Made by a program: the position numbers and the translations under genes. Below, in pieces: positions 12,868 to 20,004 of a stretch of 64,000 bases of DNA. Each line of letters opens with the position of its first letter. The stretch's first letter is position 1. This DNA is from a virus: the IMG/VR virus record IMGVR_UViG_3300035181_001003, positions 1 to 64,000 of that record; one strand, given 5' to 3'. The notes beneath the pieces are model-generated. The model was not told where the DNA came from and did no database searches. It was given only the letters and a program-made list of their open reading frames with translations.

Positions 12868-13033
12868 TCAGTCTGTAATGGCCTCGACATTCTCATCAAG
12901 CCACTCTTCATCATATGAGAAGACTTCAAGCCCACATCCCATTCAATGCAGATATCCCATGACAATTTGGAACTTTCAGTGACTACCCAATGCAGCCATT
13001 ACATTCAACCTTTGTTCCTACTGGATATTTCAT
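12868..13033 (-). pseudogene. Frameshifted small gene (about 55 codons)
   Basis: The ATG at 13033 overlaps the RNA ligase stop (ATGA) and begins MKYPVGTKVECNGCIG. The reading then has to shift twice, near 12985 and near 12925, each at a GGG run, to continue as VVTESSKLSWDICIEW and EVFSYDEEWLDENVEAITD before TGA at 12868-12870. Together these give one coherent small protein with CxxC. The total length is two short of a multiple of three, as expected for two single-base losses. Confidence 0.6.
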
Positions 13034-14088
13034 TTTTCCTTTTCCAAAAATTTATTCGAAATTGCCTTGAACGAGAATCCACCGTCCATTCGCTTGAACA
13101 CCAATCCTTCCCTAATAGGGTTGTTAATCGACGGGCCATCAGCAAACTTTAGAAGGTCTTCAACATTGAAGATGCCAAGCTCAGCAAGAGTAACATTGTA
13201 GTGTAGGATAGGCACGTGATTCACAATATGTGCATCTGCGCCGCATTCCATAAGTTCAGCAAACAGAGCCTTTCTTTCATCAGGTGTCAGCTTACGCTGA
13301 TCATCAATGAACTGCGCTTCGAAGATAAAGAACTTTGTATCCTTGAAGTTTTCACGGTTGCCTTGGATACAAGGACCCATCAGCTCACCTTGAACTGCAA
13401 TGTTCTTACCCATCTTATCAAGAACAGCCTGAAGCATAGAACCCTGGAACATCTTAACAAACGAGTTGTCCTTGTTCTCTTCGTTAATCTCCAGTTCAAG
13501 GTTACGAGAGCAGACACCAGTGTCTTGCTGGAACTTGTAAGTAGTAATAGAAGAACCATCAAGCTTGATAGTAACTTCGTAGCGAGCATCCTTGTTGTCA
13601 ATGAAAATCTCATCGACAATGTTCTGGCAGCGCTCCTGATCAGTCTTGCGAATGAAGCTAGGGAACAGACCCTTCACTTGTCCAGCCATATTAGCAGGAA
13701 GAACTGGTTCCCACTTAATGATACCAAGTTGTTCTGACACGTCAGTACCAATGCATTCATCACCAATAGAAAAGACTTCTTCAGGCTTACCAAGCACAGA
13801 AAGTGGAAGCAGAAGACCCTGCGACAGAGCACCACGCAACTTTACCGTGCGAAGCTTCTCACCCTTAATGCCTTCATAGACCCGGGGTTCCTTTCCCTTT
13901 GACAGGAATGGAGCAAGCTCATGTGGCACCCAGCAATCGATTTCACACATCACTATTAAAGTATCTTCTTCAAAATCTCCTTTTTTCACGACTATTTCCC
14001 ACCCATCCACAACAGCAACTTCAATTGCATCTGCGCCGGGAATTGGTAATAGTTTTGAAATTTTTCTAATTGTTGCAAGTTTTCTCAT
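13030..14088 (-). CDS. RNA ligase, DRB0094 family
   Basis: ATP-dependent nucleic-acid ligase of the DRB0094 RNA ligase type. An N-terminal OB-like region (about 1-115) precedes the adenylation motif KLDGSS (K175 attacks ATP). EGLVFKRMDG (motif IV) and FKAISNKFL (motif V) follow near the C-terminus. I place the start at 14088 (MRKLATIRK) because AAAGGATAAAC precedes it; the frame stays open 12 codons upstream without a good ribosome binding site. It likely seals 3'-OH/5'-P nicks in RNA during repair. A second, unrelated RNA ligase lies only 2 kb away at 14855-17468. Confidence 0.9.
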   Translation of the reverse strand: MRKLATIRKISKLLPIPGADAIEVAVVDGWEIVVKKGDFEEDTLIVMCEIDCWVPHELAPFLSKGKEPRVYEGIKGEKLRTVKLRGALSQGLLLPLSVLGKPEEVFSIGDECIGTDVSEQLGIIKWEPVLPANMAGQVKGLFPSFIRKTDQERCQNIVDEIFIDNKDARYEVTIKLDGSSITTYKFQQDTGVCSRNLELEINEENKDNSFVKMFQGSMLQAVLDKMGKNIAVQGELMGPCIQGNRENFKDTKFFIFEAQFIDDQRKLTPDERKALFAELMECGADAHIVNHVPILHYNVTLAELGIFNVEDLLKFADGPSINNPIREGLVFKRMDGGFSFKAISNKFLEKEK

Positions 14089-14139
14089 ATGTTTATCCTT
14101 TTGAAATAGATGCTTGAATACCATCTTCTAGAGATATAC

Positions 14140-14854: not shown

Positions 14855-15850
14855 TCAATCTCCTTCAGCAATAGATGGCATCATGACTACTTGAGCCTGG
14901 CCGTACTTTTCCTTAAGGATATTCTTTTCAAAATAATCCTTGTAGTTAGGTTCTTGCCCACTAAATGCTCGCATCAGCAGAGAGAAGTACTTGTGGCTGT
15001 TATGTGCGATAGCAAAGGTCTTTCGATCCATGCCTTCACATGCCTTTACAGTTGAATCAACCAGCTTTCGCAGGACATTCAGCTCAGTAACCACATTTTG
15101 TTCGATCTCTAGGATACGGTCAATGTTCACGTTTTCAGAAACCAGCATTGCCTTCATGTCATCCAGACCCTCGTCTAGAACCAGCTGAGCAATATCGCGT
15201 TCGCGAATGAATGTCATAGCGTGGTGGCGCTTGATATACCAGTCGGTCTTCAGCTTGACCATGTTTCCATCTTCAAACTGAAATACCCAACCTTCTACAC
15301 CTTCAACATTTTCATGTAGCCACTTAGCACGCTCCATGTTAAATGCAGCAAGCTTGAACTTACCGTCTTCGTAGTCTTCTGGATACCAGTTGGCATCTTC
15401 AGAAGGGAAGACATTAGCAAACTCAACTTCTTCAACGACCTTCACGTTGAACTCTTCAGCCCACTTATGAAGGTCTTCAGATTCCATGTACACACCAGTT
15501 ACGTTATCGCGAATGTGAAGCAATTGTAGTTCAGCTTCTGGGTAGAAGAGAACGATGCGAGCAGAAGGAGCAGTCCATTCAAAGATCGCCGTTAAATTTT
15601 GAGCGGTGACAAAGTTCACAAAAGACAGGACATGATGTCCAGGCTGCTCATACATCCACTTTTCAGCAGCTAGTGCAACGGCTGAGCTAAATGTCTTCTT
15701 AGATTTTAGCTTAACACCCAGATCTGTATTCACAGTATGAATCAATGAGTTATGGACGAGAATACCGTTCGCAAAAAAGTTTTTAGTACCAGTCTGAATG
15801 TCATATCGGTCAGATTGACTTTTAACTTTGGAGATATTTAGAATTTTCAT
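14855..15850 (-). CDS. Split-intein C-part fused to C-terminal RNA ligase 1
   Basis: Residues 1-34 are a short C-intein: RYDIQTGTKNFFANG matches intein block F and ILVHN followed by S matches block G (penultimate His, terminal Asn, Ser at +1). From S35 on the sequence is the C-terminal part of a T4 Rnl1-type RNA ligase: SLIHTV continues the broken KxDG-S motif, EGWVFQFEDG is motif IV and VKLKTDWYIKRH is motif V. The C-extein is 297 aa. Joined to the 96-aa N-extein from 16881-17468 it gives about 393 aa, near T4 Rnl1 (374 aa). Without trans-splicing neither half has a complete active site. The start has only a weak ribosome binding site. Confidence 0.93.
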   Translation of the reverse strand: MKILNISKVKSQSDRYDIQTGTKNFFANGILVHNSLIHTVNTDLGVKLKSKKTFSSAVALAAEKWMYEQPGHHVLSFVNFVTAQNLTAIFEWTAPSARIVLFYPEAELQLLHIRDNVTGVYMESEDLHKWAEEFNVKVVEEVEFANVFPSEDANWYPEDYEDGKFKLAAFNMERAKWLHENVEGVEGWVFQFEDGNMVKLKTDWYIKRHHAMTFIRERDIAQLVLDEGLDDMKAMLVSENVNIDRILEIEQNVVTELNVLRKLVDSTVKACEGMDRKTFAIAHNSHKYFSLLMRAFSGQEPNYKDYFEKNILKEKYGQAQVVMMPSIAEGD

Positions 15851-15897
15851 ATAGTAGTACCATGCTGATGGAAAAACGTGATTATATTGCGTTTGTC

Positions 15898-15905
15898 TAT
15901 AAATA
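15898..15905 (+). promoter_or_regulatory. T4-type late promoter for the homing endonuclease
   Basis: TATAAATA on the plus strand, 36 bases upstream of the ATG at 15941. It is the only plus-strand perfect match I found. It lies inside the longer possible ORF that begins at 15878, which argues that 15941 is the true start. Confidence 0.6.
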
Positions 15906-15940
15906 GATTATATCATAAATCTATCGTGGAAATACATAGT

Positions 15941-16915
15941 ATGAAACCATATAAACCACTAACATGCCCAATCTGTGGAACTGCATCAAAATTGCCACAC
16001 TATAAAACTTGTGGTAAGGATTATCCCAAAAATGAGTTTAAACTACATGTGTTGACGTATAATCATTCAAAGATCAATCTATCTGATAAAGAATTGATAT
16101 ATAAGCTGTATGTTGAAGATGAACTTTCATCAGTTGATTTTTACAAAATGTTTAATGTCAATTTTAAGGTATTGAACTTTGTCTTAGATATGCATAGAAT
16201 TCCCAAACGAAATCTTGAGACAGCGAACAATACTAACTCAATTAAAAAGAAATATCGAGAAACATGTTTGACAAAATATGGCACTACAAATGCTCTGTCT
16301 AAAGGTTCAGTTGGATATATTACAAGACAAAGAACTCTTAAGGAACGTTACGGCATTGTTAATGTGTTTCAACTTACAGAGGTCAAAGACAAAATAACTA
16401 AAACTCATCTTGAACATTATGGTAAGAAAAGAGTTAATCCATACGAAAATCTCACCGATGAACAACTGTATATAATACATCAAAAGAAACAAAATACAAT
16501 GATCACTAATGGAACGTTACCACGATACTTTAAAATCAATAAACTTGAAACCCGTGTCGCTAACTGTTTAACTTTCCTTGGTGTTCCATTTCAATATTCA
16601 TTTTTTATCAAAAGATTTCAATATGATTTTTTGATAAACAATAATGTTGTTCTTGAAGTTCAAGGAGACTTCTGGCATGCTAACCCTAAATTTTACACGG
16701 AAAACAGTCTGTTAAACTTTCCAGGCAAAACAACTAAAATCGCCGCCAAGGATATTTGGAACAAAGATCTGAAGAAACGGAATATTGCGATCGAATCTGG
16801 ATATCGATATCTCTCGATCTGGGAGAATGATATAAACTCCAAAACAGATAATGAACTTGAACAATTCATTCTCACATTACTCAGTACAGTTTTTGAACTT
16901 CATCCTGTGTTGTGA
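15941..16915 (+). CDS. Vsr-like (EDxHD) homing endonuclease between intein halves
   Basis: 324-aa free-standing endonuclease. The N-terminus has a zinc-finger-like CPICG plus C24. The middle (about 105-165) has two KYGTTNA/RYGIVNVFQ repeats typical of DNA-binding segments in phage homing nucleases. The C-terminal catalytic domain is Vsr-like: E203, YDFL with D229, EVQGDFWH with E239, D243 and H246, and NKD near 276, consistent with the EDxHD family found with fractured genes. It is transcribed opposite to the ligase halves from its own TATAAATA. The start at 15941 has GTGGAA upstream. The 3' end overlaps the N-half gene by 35 bases. Confidence 0.9.
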   Translation: MKPYKPLTCPICGTASKLPHYKTCGKDYPKNEFKLHVLTYNHSKINLSDKELIYKLYVEDELSSVDFYKMFNVNFKVLNFVLDMHRIPKRNLETANNTNSIKKKYRETCLTKYGTTNALSKGSVGYITRQRTLKERYGIVNVFQLTEVKDKITKTHLEHYGKKRVNPYENLTDEQLYIIHQKKQNTMITNGTLPRYFKINKLETRVANCLTFLGVPFQYSFFIKRFQYDFLINNNVVLEVQGDFWHANPKFYTENSLLNFPGKTTKIAAKDIWNKDLKKRNIAIESGYRYLSIWENDINSKTDNELEQFILTLLSTVFELHPVL

Positions 16916-17468
16916 GCTGATCAACTCGAACATATCTCTCTTGATTGATACACCATACTAGGTGGTTTCCAGTTAATTTGATCTTGCTTCCATCCTCCAT
17001 TTCAAGTTCATACCAATCATTGTTATTTGGTTTAACTTCATGACCCAGAATAGGAGTCCACTGAACTTCATTCAAGACATGATTCCAGCCCATGACCAAC
17101 CCTGTGTAATTGGAGTCACACACATCCTTAATGGTCTTTGGGCCATCTATAGTGAATAGCACTGTATCTTCGTCACAGCATCCATCTCGCTTATCCATAA
17201 CTCGCACAACCTTTGACCAATCCAAGTTCTTTAGAAGGGTTTCTTCACGCTCATTCACGTTGAAGAACTTATGAAGAGGACGACCAACAACATCTGGACC
17301 GTCAAAAACGATACCACGACACTCACGCGCAGCAGCCGAGTCAAAGGTATCTGGACCAGAGACCATGTAGCAAAAGGAAGTGCAGCCATGACCGATGTGG
17401 GCTTCACGGATTTCTTCCTTGCACTTTACAAGTTCACGGAATTCTTCAACTTCGGTAATCTTTAACAT
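16881..17468 (-). CDS. N-terminal RNA ligase 1 fused to split-intein N-part
   Basis: Residues 1-96 are the N-terminal part of a T4 Rnl1-type RNA ligase (ARECRGIVFD upstream of the nucleotidyl motif, then MDKRDG with catalytic K93). At C97 an intein begins: CCDEDTV fits the block A pattern C-x-x-x-D-T, and KLTGNHLVW carries the block B T-x-x-H. The N-intein is 99 aa and ends at the stop. The break lies exactly between G and S of KxDGS. AAAGGAAA precedes the ATG and an early promoter lies at 17491-17520. The partner C-intein is at 15749-15850. Confidence 0.94.
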   Translation of the reverse strand: MLKITEVEEFRELVKCKEEIREAHIGHGCTSFCYMVSGPDTFDSAAARECRGIVFDGPDVVGRPLHKFFNVNEREETLLKNLDWSKVVRVMDKRDGCCDEDTVLFTIDGPKTIKDVCDSNYTGLVMGWNHVLNEVQWTPILGHEVKPNNNDWYELEMEDGSKIKLTGNHLVWCINQERYVRVDQLTTQDEVQKLY

Positions 17469-17871: not shown

Positions 17872-19230
17872 TTAATAAAGTTCAACCCAGCTTGCCGTAT
17901 TGTTATGGTCATTTGTTACATAGTACCAACCATTCGCAGGAACAACAAATGACATTGGATAGAAAGTTCCACCATTAGTAGTGTCTGAGTGGGTTGCCGC
18001 GACTTGAAGTCCATTTACAACAGCAGTGCACTGTCCAGATGGACCACCAGATGAACCGGGGGTGTAGATAACCATCCAAGGACGGCCATCATTTGCAGGA
18101 TTATAGTATGCAGTACCGAAAGAGCGAGCACCATTTACGTTATGCCAAGATTGTCCAGCACCAATACCACTTCCTGAGGCACCTGATGCAGCAGATGTTA
18201 CACGACCATAACTGTCAAGAACAACGGTGGCATTGGTAAATGTTCCGCCACCATGAATTGCGGCCATGTTTAGTTGGGCAGTACCACCCTGTCCAATTAC
18301 ACCCCCACCAGCAAGAGCACCAACACCTTGAACAGTAAGAGTTCCGGCTCCAGCACTTGTAATTCTACCATAGGCATCAACGTTGATGTTGGCCATTCCG
18401 TAGTAGCCAGCAGCTACCCCAGAGGCAGCGAGATCAAGAGTAGCTGTTCCAGTTGATGTAATTGTGCCACCACCAGTTATTCTTCCAGCAGCTCCAGCAA
18501 CAGTAACGCTTGTTACACCATGAGCATCAACGTACTGCTTAGTGGCAGCATGCATGGCTGCTGTTGGATTTGCACTTAGAACAAGATTGCCAGTCATCGT
18601 ATCACCGGCTTTGTTTACAGGGGTGTAACCCAGTGCTGATATTATGTTAGATGGTGAGCTACTTGAAATGTAGGAGTTTGGATTTGAAGCCGAGTATGGC
18701 GTAAAACCAAGAGCAGTAACAACGTTCTGGTAGGTAATGCTAGAGATGTAGTTGTACGGGTTCGTGCTTGGATATGGTGTGTAGCCAAGAGCTGAAATTA
18801 CATTGGCAGAAGTAATACCAGAGATATATCCACTTGGATTCGTTGCGTTATATGGCGTATAACCAAGAGCTGAAATAACCGATGATGAACTTGGAGCGCT
18901 ACTGATGTCAACCCAGCCAATGCCATTTCCAGGGTAGTGAATGGTTAGATTTGAAACGTGTAGTGGATCAACGCACAAATAAAGAACACCATCTACTGGG
19001 TTAAACCAAAGCTGCCCAATGGTTGGGTTTGCTGGTTGATTAGCGGATGCGAAATTCTCAAGTAGACGAATGATATTTTGCTGTTCAATCGGTCCATAGT
19101 TTTTAACCCCAGTCCCAACAAGGGCAAGAGAGGATGCTTCGTTGTTTACGTTTTTTGTTTGGATGGTGATAGTTGACTTACCAAGAATACCCTCGGTACC
19201 ACCGCTTGACCATGAAATCGTGTCTGCCAT
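17872..19230 (-). CDS. Tail-fibre protein with ALGYTP repeats, 452 aa
   Basis: The N-terminal domain (about 1-110) starts DTISWSSGGTEGILGKSTI and contains a NPTIGQLWFNP motif; the neighbouring gene 19243-20004 has the same domain, so the two are paralogues. Residues about 115-215 carry five ALGYTP repeats. Then a KAGDTMTGNL motif and Gly-rich beta repeats (GRITGGGT, GRITSAGAG) lead to a C-terminal domain likely to bind the host surface. It is Gly/Ser/Thr-rich throughout. Transcribed late from 20081-20088. Confidence 0.85.
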   Translation of the reverse strand: MADTISWSSGGTEGILGKSTITIQTKNVNNEASSLALVGTGVKNYGPIEQQNIIRLLENFASANQPANPTIGQLWFNPVDGVLYLCVDPLHVSNLTIHYPGNGIGWVDISSAPSSSSVISALGYTPYNATNPSGYISGITSANVISALGYTPYPSTNPYNYISSITYQNVVTALGFTPYSASNPNSYISSSSPSNIISALGYTPVNKAGDTMTGNLVLSANPTAAMHAATKQYVDAHGVTSVTVAGAAGRITGGGTITSTGTATLDLAASGVAAGYYGMANINVDAYGRITSAGAGTLTVQGVGALAGGGVIGQGGTAQLNMAAIHGGGTFTNATVVLDSYGRVTSAASGASGSGIGAGQSWHNVNGARSFGTAYYNPANDGRPWMVIYTPGSSGGPSGQCTAVVNGLQVAATHSDTTNGGTFYPMSFVVPANGWYYVTNDHNNTASWVELY

Positions 19231-19242
19231 ATTGTCTCCAAA

Positions 19243-20004
19243 TTAAGAGTAGACCGCTGGGAATACTTGGTTCCACCCACCCGCAGCATAGATTGAAATG
19301 ATTGAACCAGCGACCTTTATGTCTCCATCAACTGGATCTGTAGGATTAATGGCGGCAGCAGTACCTCCTCTAAGGCTTACTCCAGCGAAGGTGGGCATGT
19401 CTGTGGTCTTAAGACCAGTAATGTCAGCTTGAGCGAGGGCAACTGCCCCCGTCTTACCAGCAACTGACTGCACAGGAGCTTGAGCGGCACTAATGTAGCT
19501 ATTAGGATTGGCTGCATTATATGGGATGTAGCCAAGAGCATTAGTGATATTTGTAGAGCTTACTGAAGCAATGTATCCATTAGGATTTGTTTCAGTTGGG
19601 TATGGTGTGTAACCAAGTGCATTGATAATACTGGACGCGAGCACCGTAATTGGACCAGACGTAGCACCAATGTTACCTATATTGATCCACCCCTTACCAT
19701 TTGACTGATAGAAAAGTGTCTGTCCTGGCGTTTGAGCGAGCTCGGCGCAGCAGTAAAGAGCAGCATCAGTTGGATTGAACCAAAGCTGTCCCACTGTAGG
19801 ATTAACAGGAGGAATGACGGAAGCAAAGTTCTCAAGCAAGCGGATGAAGTTCTGCTGCTGAATTTGCCCGTATTGGGTGCCTTTTCCCGTGAGGGTAAGT
19901 GTAGTAGATGTTGTGTCGAGCGTTTGCTGCGGGATAGAAATTGCTGTTTTCCCAGCAATACCCTCAGCGTTGTTGCTTGACCAGGTAACTGTATAAGTCG
20001 TCAT
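19243..20004 (-). CDS. Tail-fibre protein, 253 aa, paralogue of the next gene
   Basis: It shares the N-terminal domain (TWSSNNAEGIAGKTAI, NPTVGQLWFNP) and the ALGYTP/ALGYIP repeats (about 130-170) of the 452-aa protein, but ends in a short Gly-rich segment. It may be an alternative or shorter fibre subunit. Residues about 205-253 include the GG-x-AA-x-NP-x-DP-x-DGDI pattern found in many fibre proteins. First gene after the late promoter at 20081-20088. Confidence 0.8.
   Translation of the reverse strand: MTTYTVTWSSNNAEGIAGKTAISIPQQTLDTTSTTLTLTGKGTQYGQIQQQNFIRLLENFASVIPPVNPTVGQLWFNPTDAALYCCAELAQTPGQTLFYQSNGKGWINIGNIGATSGPITVLASSIINALGYTPYPTETNPNGYIASVSSTNITNALGYIPYNAANPNSYISAAQAPVQSVAGKTGAVALAQADITGLKTTDMPTFAGVSLRGGTAAAINPTDPVDGDIKVAGSIISIYAAGGWNQVFPAVYS

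What the first reader, a model, noticed from the sequence alone, without database searches (positions are those of the whole stretch)
14855..17468. RNA ligase 1 gene fractured by a split intein with an endonuclease between the halves
The N half ends the ligase at KRDG and begins an intein at Cys (block A, block B). The C half begins with intein blocks F and G ending HN and continues with SLIHT, exactly restoring KxDGS. Block pattern, extein junction and combined length (about 393 aa) agree. This is the fractured-gene arrangement described by Dassa et al. (2009) for helicase, IMP dehydrogenase and ribonucleotide reductase genes. I know of no RNA ligase host for it. The cut sits in the catalytic motif, so ligase activity depends on trans-splicing.
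Basis: partly seen in the sequence, partly recalled or inferred. Interest (0 to 1): 0.95.

Follow-up and report, generated by a model that had tools for sequence, protein, structure and literature searches.

The report
Phage RNA ligase rejoined by intein
In this uncultured phage, the gene for an RNA-joining enzyme is cut in two, inside its active site, by a selfish DNA element; the two protein halves carry matching pieces of a protein-splicing element that should weld them back together, and related elements sit at the same motif in many other phage nucleic-acid ligases.

Summary
Two minus-strand genes (17468..16881, 15850..14855) encode complementary parts of a T4 RNA ligase 1 (RnlA) family protein, TIGR02308 columns 32-104 and 104-349. 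They end and begin with the parts of a class-1-type split intein (99 + 34 aa), cut between KRDG and S of the catalytic KxDGS motif. Between them lies a Vsr/EDxHD homing endonuclease gene, on the opposite strand. A syntenic relative (L013) has the intact, intein-free ligase; three further lineages share the arrangement, endonuclease antisense. Silent-site divergence suggests that intein and endonuclease moved together, apart from the host gene. Beyond the finding: a search with intein N parts alone found 40 loci, all 40 in nucleic-acid ligases (RnlA 11, other RNA ligases 17, ATP-dependent DNA ligase 11, NAD-dependent 1), 39 at the KxDG/KxHG motif. One RnlA carries a contiguous form. The arrangement itself ('fractured genes', Dassa et al. 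2009, recalled) and Vsr-split inteins in phage PolB are known. An RNA-ligase host I did not find in nine searches of an open-access library that lacks the Dassa paper. Trans-splicing is inferred, not shown.

The parts
17181..17468 (-). N extein of RnlA-type RNA ligase 1 (96 aa, ends DKRDG with the nucleotidyl-accepting Lys)
   Evidence: TIGR02308 cols 32-104, PF09511 and phrog_562 matches; T4 Rnl1 2c5u match
16884..17180 (-). IntN, N-terminal part of split intein (99 aa, Cys1, block B T-G-N-H); stop codon 16881-16883
   Evidence: TIGR01445 intein_Nterm 97-171 (below its cut-off: 20.9 against 24.5 bits), PF14890 (below cut-off), NrdJ-1 8ubs via profile A3 E 3e-11
15941..16915 (+). Vsr/EDxHD homing endonuclease gene, antisense to the ligase halves (ATG 15941; 324 aa; upstream GTG at 15878 less likely)
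   Evidence: profile A4 matches I-Bth0305I 3r3p E 2.3e-6 and Vsr 1cw0 3.3e-5; AF2 model pLDDT 88, top PDB fold hit 3r3p, TM 0.74 by target; putative catalytic E203, D229, H246, D276
15749..15850 (-). IntC, C-terminal part of split intein (34 aa, ends ILVHN)
   Evidence: TIGR01443 intein_Cterm above cut-off, 24.0 against 15.6 bits; NrdJ-1 8ubs residues 120-149
14858..15748 (-). C extein of RnlA-type RNA ligase 1 (297 aa, starts SLIHT; stop 14855-14857)
   Evidence: TIGR02308 cols 104-349, PF09511, PF20819 T4_Rnl1_C, phrog_562; 2c5u E 1.4e-22
15851..15940 (.). divergent intergenic stretch between endonuclease and C-half gene, with a 24-bp stretch (15892-15915) shared with L011 that holds TGATATAAT (- strand, 15907-15915) and TATAAATA (+ strand, 15898); possible promoter for the C half
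   Evidence: inference; the sigma-70 scan did not list a promoter there

Best explanation
A mobile cassette (IntN, endonuclease gene, IntC) has inserted precisely between the codons for G and S of the KxDGS adenylation motif of a phage RNA ligase 1 gene. The two half-genes are translated separately; IntN and IntC associate, fold into an active class-1 intein and splice in trans (Cys1 attack, transfer to Ser+1, Asn cyclisation), giving a scarless 393-aa ligase. The Vsr/EDxHD endonuclease cuts intein-free ligase alleles of co-infecting phages near this motif, and repair copies the cassette in. Shown here: sequence anatomy, family memberships, empty site, a lateral-transfer signal, purifying selection on IntN, IntC and endonuclease. 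Inferred: splicing in trans, target cleavage, dependence of ligase activity on splicing.
For: RnlA profile columns and intein N/C models meet at the junction; both halves match T4 Rnl1 and NrdJ-1 structures. Catalytic ligase motifs as I recall them for T4 Rnl1 are matched in the exteins (K of KRDG; IFEWTAP; VEGW; KLK). Intein: Cys1, TGNH, HN, Ser+1, IntN charge -9 and IntC +3. Empty site: L013, same gene order, N extein 92% identical, C extein directly following. Same architecture in L011 (identical to L012), L017, L165 (identical to L166). Identical 4-fold sites, window vs L011: IntN+HEG+IntC 67/132, exteins 29/104, Fisher p 0.0005; exteins window vs empty L013 64/127. dN/dS about 0.1 in IntN, HEG and IntC (0.13/1.26, 0.11/1.08, 0.08/0.78). 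HEG family.
Against: No experiment. PF14890 and intein_Nterm scores are below their curated cut-offs. Block F has Lys where I recall His in many inteins (TKNFF). The C half lies behind an antisense gene, so it needs its own promoter or read-through; the promoter scan gave none there. The AF2 model of the contiguous relative L005 was poor (pLDDT 63.8), so the intein fold was not confirmed by structure prediction. The 4-fold-site test rests on one pair of intein-bearing genes; the HEG is AT-rich (GC 0.32), which raises chance identity, and dS between the exteins was not computable (saturated).
Confidence: 0.91

Rival explanations
1. Gene-in-pieces without splicing: an endonuclease split the gene and the halves work as a non-covalent complex, as reported for a ribonucleotide reductase (Friedrich et al. 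2007, seen only as cited in PMC10448857).
For: An endonuclease gene does lie between two intact half genes.
Against: Both halves carry intein parts with intact splicing residues under purifying selection; the cut lies inside the KxDG^S motif, so a break there would have to be tolerated in the active site.
Confidence: 0.04
2. Decayed relic: the intein no longer splices and the ligase is dead, its work taken over by the second RNA ligase in the window (DRB0094 type, 14124..13030).
For: A second RNA ligase of another family is 0.7 kb downstream, so loss could be tolerated.
Against: Both frames are open; dN much lower than dS in both intein halves against L011; the C extein keeps catalytic motifs.
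Confidence: 0.05
3. Assembly artefact or chimera in a metagenomic contig.
For: The relatives with this arrangement are metagenomic contigs; the second identical record is probably the same virus.
Against: Same order in diverged contigs: L011/L012 (two contigs, identical over 12,591 bases), L017 and L165/L166.
Confidence: 0.01
4. The split intein is no mere parasite but a control switch: ligase appears only once both halves are made and splicing conditions (for example reducing state, a Cys-Cys start) are right.
For: Splicing inside the catalytic motif makes activity conditional; Cys-Cys at intein positions 1-2 recurs in L011, L005, L096, L098, L119.
Against: Most RnlA relatives have no intein (90 of 101 distinct N exteins run on); Leu at position 2 in L017, L165, L097, L101; the lateral-transfer signal fits a parasite.
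Confidence: 0.1

Closest known systems
Fractured genes with split inteins and a new (Vsr-type) endonuclease family (Dassa et al. 2009, NAR 37:2560; content recalled, seen only in citations and reference lists; text not held)
   Same: Conserved enzyme gene broken by a split intein with a free-standing Vsr-like endonuclease gene between the halves
   Different: Host is RNA ligase 1, cut in its catalytic motif; endonuclease on the opposite strand. Whether the 2009 set holds ligases or antisense cases could not be checked.
Aeromonas phage Aes508 split PolB (two intein-bearing PolB parts with a VSR-domain ORF between; JN377894, annotated as such)
   Same: T4-like phage (Straboviridae); split intein, VSR-domain ORF between the halves
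   Different: Host gene is DNA polymerase; endonuclease on the same strand. The PolB intein of Aeromonas phage Aes123 is called cysteine-less (PMC11923092, abstract start seen); here Cys1
Pseudomonas phage MIJ3 split PolB with HNH endonuclease (PMC6892783, passages seen)
   Same: Split intein with endonuclease gene between halves in a jumbo phage
   Different: HNH, not Vsr, endonuclease; PolB host
NrdJ-1 split intein (PDB 8ubs)
   Same: Closest solved intein by sequence; IntN/IntC sizes alike
   Different: Ribonucleotide reductase host; NrdJ inteins L137, L139 lie apart from the ligase inteins in the tree (98/97)
I-Bth0305I (PDB 3r3p), EDxHD homing endonuclease
   Same: Catalytic domain fold and sequence profile
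   Different: Annotated as mobile intron protein; here an N-terminal Cys/His zinc-finger-like part, and a different target is expected

Membership tests
T4 RnlA / RNA ligase 1 (TIGR02308, phrog_562) | Extein sequence covers the family profile without gap at the break | tested here: met
   columns 32-104 and 104-349; each half alone is below the whole-protein cut-off of 242.25 bits
T4 RnlA / RNA ligase 1 (TIGR02308, phrog_562) | C-terminal T4_Rnl1_C domain | tested here: met
   PF20819 39.6 bits, cut-off 27
T4 RnlA / RNA ligase 1 (TIGR02308, phrog_562) | RNA ligase activity | not testable with these tools
   needs an assay
Class 1 split intein | Cys/Ser 1, block B TxxH, C-terminal His-Asn, Cys/Ser/Thr +1 | tested here: met
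   C97, TGNH, HN34, S35
Class 1 split intein | Break at the usual endonuclease site, IntN about 100 aa and IntC about 35 aa | tested here: met
   99 and 34 aa; contiguous relative L005 joins the two parts at the same place; what is usual is recalled and in a passage of PMC12707363
Class 1 split intein | Splicing in trans | not testable with these tools
   needs co-expression
Fractured gene (Dassa type) | Free-standing endonuclease gene between the intein halves | tested here: met
   15941..16915
Fractured gene (Dassa type) | Intein-free alleles of the same gene exist | tested here: met
   L013/L003, syntenic, precise empty site
Fractured gene (Dassa type) | Endonuclease on the same strand as the host gene (seen in most relatives here; not known to be defining) | tested here: not met
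   of 33 split loci with ligase or ligase-like hosts, 29 have an ORF of 100 aa or more in the gap; the longest is same-strand in 26, antisense in 3 (window's twin L010, L011, L017); L165 is a fourth antisense case outside the 29
EDxHD / Vsr homing endonuclease | Catalytic residues and fold of I-Bth0305I | tested here: met
   profile E 2.3e-6, fold E 2.7e-4, TM 0.74 by target; D229, H246, D276 invariant in the 22 aligned sequences, E203 not; which residues are catalytic is recalled
EDxHD / Vsr homing endonuclease | Cuts the intein-free allele | not testable with these tools
   needs cleavage assay

The most novel reading that the evidence does not exclude
There is a ligase-dedicated lineage of split inteins with Vsr-type endonucleases that lives in the adenylation motif KxDG/KxHG of phage nucleic-acid ligases and has moved between distinct ligase families (RnlA, Rnl2/DRB0094-like, ATP-dependent and even NAD-dependent DNA ligase) through that shared motif; the window belongs to a branch that flipped its endonuclease to the opposite strand.
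Probability: 0.6. Interest if true: 0.75.

Novelty: new member of a known kind. Interest (0 to 1): 0.62.

Why it matters
It adds RNA ligase 1, a standard molecular-biology enzyme and a phage RNA-repair protein, to the hosts of fractured genes, with the break inside the active site, so trans-splicing becomes a precondition of catalysis (inferred). The wider set gives many candidate natural split inteins for protein engineering, a natural experiment (contiguous, split, split without endonuclease, empty) on how inteins become split, and a case in which an element seems to have spread across distinct enzyme families through one shared catalytic motif.

Tried and rejected
Named phage isolates: tblastn of the window's IntN against 50,697 phage records gave 16 records at E 0.01: 8 Salmonella phages annotated DNA helicase, 2 Gordonia annotated terminase, 6 without annotation under the match (4 Prevotella Lak phages, 1 Streptococcus phage, 1 uncultured). 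Of the 6 I read three (Lak-B4, helicase-like; the Streptococcus phage, host gene not identified; LR745208, DnaX-like); none reads as a ligase. The contiguous relative's intein gave 15 records, none annotated as ligase; the IntN of L121 gave none. So isolates with this host were not found.

Structure of the contiguous relative L005 as a stand-in for the joined intein: model too poor to use; no fold search made with it.

A T4-like late promoter (TATAAATA) for the endonuclease: 8 in the window against about 6 in 20 shuffles, not supported. An extended -10 box (TGNTATAAT) is mildly enriched, 7 against 2.7, 2 of 100 shuffles as high; a weak lead only.

One origin for all RnlA-hosted inteins: not shown; they need 3 changes on the tree, and one clade is not rejected either (p-AU 0.35). 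Placement of L017 varied: open, with window and L011.

Literature: nine searches of the open-access library; for several only the top 20-25 of more papers were listed (20 of 32, 25 of 26, 25 of 85, 20 of 1,413, 25 of 657). I saw titles, abstract starts and, for nine papers, passages around my terms; no RNA- or DNA-ligase fractured gene was seen. The Dassa 2009 paper is not held, so absence from print is not established.
Full report
What is there. On the minus strand, 17468..16881 encodes 195 aa and 15850..14855 encodes 331 aa; between them, on the plus strand, 15878..16915 is open. The first protein is an RnlA N part (residues 1-96, ending DKRDG) followed by an intein N part (97-195); the second is an intein C part (1-34, ending ILVHN) followed by the rest of RnlA (35-331). 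Curated models agree with these borders: TIGR02308 columns 32-104 and 104-349, intein_Nterm from residue 97, intein_Cterm to residue 35. Pfam gives RNA_lig_T4_1 on both halves and T4_Rnl1_C on the second; PHROGs gives phrog_562, RNA ligase and tail fibre attachment catalyst, on both. The PDB gives T4 Rnl1 and the NrdJ-1 split intein for both halves. IntN scores are below the curated cut-offs of PF14890 and TIGR01445; IntC is above that of TIGR01443 and below that of PF14890.

The endonuclease. A profile of 22 sequences (A4) matches I-Bth0305I (3r3p, E 2.3e-6) and Vsr (1cw0, 3.3e-5). The AlphaFold2 model (mean pLDDT 88.1, pTM 0.46) has 3r3p as its best PDB fold match (E 2.7e-4, TM 0.74 by target length, 0.25 by query length); mitoribosomal chains of Toxoplasma follow with similar E-values but rmsd of 18 to 23, and I disregard them. 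The gene is antisense to the ligase and overlaps the end of the N-half gene by 35 bp; tail-to-tail overlap is seen in L011, L017 and L165 as well (coordinates).

Relatives with and without the element. L013/L003 (contig IMGVR_UViG_3300045971_000208) keeps the same gene order on both sides (matches of 37 to 89% identity) and has an uninterrupted ligase, N extein 92% and C extein 66-70% identical, joined exactly at the site. L011 (identical to L012), L017 and L165 (identical to L166) have the same N half, antisense endonuclease and C half. Among the loci fetched, 101 distinct RnlA-type N exteins (profile E 1e-5) reach the KxDG end; 6 carry IntN, 90 run on for at least 150 aa, 5 end sooner without IntN. 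The diverged RnlA hosts L096, L098, L119 and L005 do not appear among the 6, so that profile undercounts.

Mobility. Between window and L011, identical 4-fold sites are 5/27 and 24/77 in the two exteins but 15/28, 46/93 and 6/11 in IntN, endonuclease and IntC; pooled 29/104 against 67/132, p 0.0005. The window's exteins are as close to the empty L013 (64/127) as its cassette is to that of L011. So intein halves and endonuclease share a history that differs from the host gene's, as homing predicts. dN/dS is near 0.1 in all three parts. Caveats: few sites, one pair, AT-rich endonuclease (GC 0.32 against 0.42 for the window).

The wider family. A profile of IntN alone (A3: window, L011, L017, L005) against viral contigs gave 40 loci (L092-L131, several of them repeats of one virus or near-identical contigs). 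The residues before the intein are K-x-D-G, K-x-H-G or (two loci) K-x-D-G-E-N in 39 of 40; in L106 the intein sits at a second site (DEER^C) of a DRB0094-like RNA ligase. Each of the 40 has a ligase-family hit in its C or N extein, directly or through another locus on the same or an identical stretch: RnlA phrog_562 in 11 (L092-L098, L100-L102, L119), other RNA ligases by PF09414 or phrog_968 in 17 (L099, L103-L106, L108-L115, L118, L120, L122, L123), ATP-dependent DNA ligase in 11 (L107, L116, L117, L124-L131), NAD-dependent DNA ligase in 1 (L121). Weakest: L099, only by its PHA02142 OB-fold domain, which the window's own DRB0094 ligase also has, and L118, by its N extein alone. Outside the 40: L142 (bacterial MAG contig), L138, L148, L151 with PF09414; L150 by reading; L136 has KLDG^C but no family hit.

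Results against exclusiveness. Searches with the C half or the endonuclease brought in non-ligase hosts: NrdJ (L137, phrog_367; L139 by reading), DnaE (L152), terminases (L007-L009, L140, L141) and an aminotransferase (L006), the last two by reading. L138, an Rnl2-type ligase with a long contiguous intein at the same KIHG^C site, falls with the non-ligase inteins (98/92, long branch; outside the ligase set). So the motif has probably been hit by more than one intein lineage, and the broader intein fold is not confined to ligases.

Tree. With IntN+IntC joined, the other ligase inteins fall on one side of a branch from NrdJ, DnaE and UvsW inteins (98/97; 90/80 with eight outgroup rows). One search left out L138, the long rows L006 and L007, L155, and the near repeats L112, L118, L122, L127 and L129; its bootstrap had not settled. 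The four antisense-endonuclease RnlA inteins group together (95/95). L103 (Rnl2-like RNA ligase) and L121 (NAD DNA ligase) pair (96/83; 80/79, 94/85), which suggests transfer between ligase families. Most deep forks within the ligase set are open.

Intermediate forms. L005 holds a contiguous mini-intein at the same RnlA site; L106 and L115 have split inteins with a gap too short for an endonuclease (512 and 510 bp for the whole insert); L101 has a short endonuclease ORF with R where others have H. Together with empty alleles these look like stages of an invasion, loss or splitting cycle, whose direction is not established.

How it most likely works. Trans-splicing restores the ligase; the break inside the lysine motif means neither half should work alone (inference from Rnl1 chemistry, recalled). 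The window has a second RNA ligase (DRB0094 type), so temporary loss may be tolerated. The C half needs its own transcription start or read-through: a 24-bp stretch conserved with L011 between endonuclease and C half holds an extended -10 box, a weak lead, while the consensus scan shows no promoter there.

Phage. The window encodes PolB and two topoisomerase II subunits by PHROGs; with RnlA this fits a T4-related large phage (inference). The record is 88,308 bases; a 239-kb contig is identical over the 13 kb fetched.

Novelty. The arrangement is known (Dassa et al. 2009, recalled; PolB of Aes508; MIJ3). RNA ligase 1 as host, and the ligase-centred lineage, did not turn up in nine literature searches, partly listed, of a library that lacks that paper. 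I therefore file the window as a new member of a known kind with an unusual antisense endonuclease, and give the cross-family lineage as the most novel reading.

Noticed in passing
window 13030..14124 (-): A second, intact RNA ligase (DRB0094 family, TIGR02306) reads KTDQER/CQNI, the cognate empty site at which L148-L151 carry a split intein (KTDEER^C or KTDEVR^C ... HN^CQNL).
   Followed up: partly
L005:5440-6960: RnlA-type ligase with a contiguous mini-intein and no endonuclease at the same KxDG^S site.
   Followed up: partly
L121:3617-6985: NAD-dependent DNA ligase fractured at KIDG^C by a related split intein with a Vsr-type endonuclease.
   Followed up: partly
L106 and L115: Split inteins whose halves are separated by a gap too short for an endonuclease (whole inserts 512 and 510 bp): perhaps split inteins that lost the endonuclease.
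   Followed up: no
L099:3416-4303: N half of a DRB0094-like ligase with IntN at KVDG^C but no IntC found within the locus.
   Followed up: partly
L155:3536-6512 (Prevotella phage Lak-B4): Helicase-like gene apparently split by an intein, in an unannotated 550-kb phage genome.
   Followed up: no
L142 (CASEYV010000001.1): A contig of a bacterial metagenome-assembled genome carries an RNA ligase fractured at EKVHG^C; possibly phage DNA.
   Followed up: no
window 17872..20004 (-): Two neighbouring genes beside the ligase encode similar, perhaps tail-fibre-like proteins with repeated GYTPY motifs (about 46-47% identical in part).
   Followed up: no
L157:3962-4921 (LR756501.1): A relative of the endonuclease stands alone in a 735-kb phage genome, with no intein part found in the locus; an uninterrupted ligase-like ORF with KMDGEN lies about 3 kb away.
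   Followed up: partly
L138:451-2457: Rnl2-type RNA ligase with a long contiguous intein (about 350 aa) at the same KIHG^C site, from another intein lineage in the trees.
   Followed up: partly
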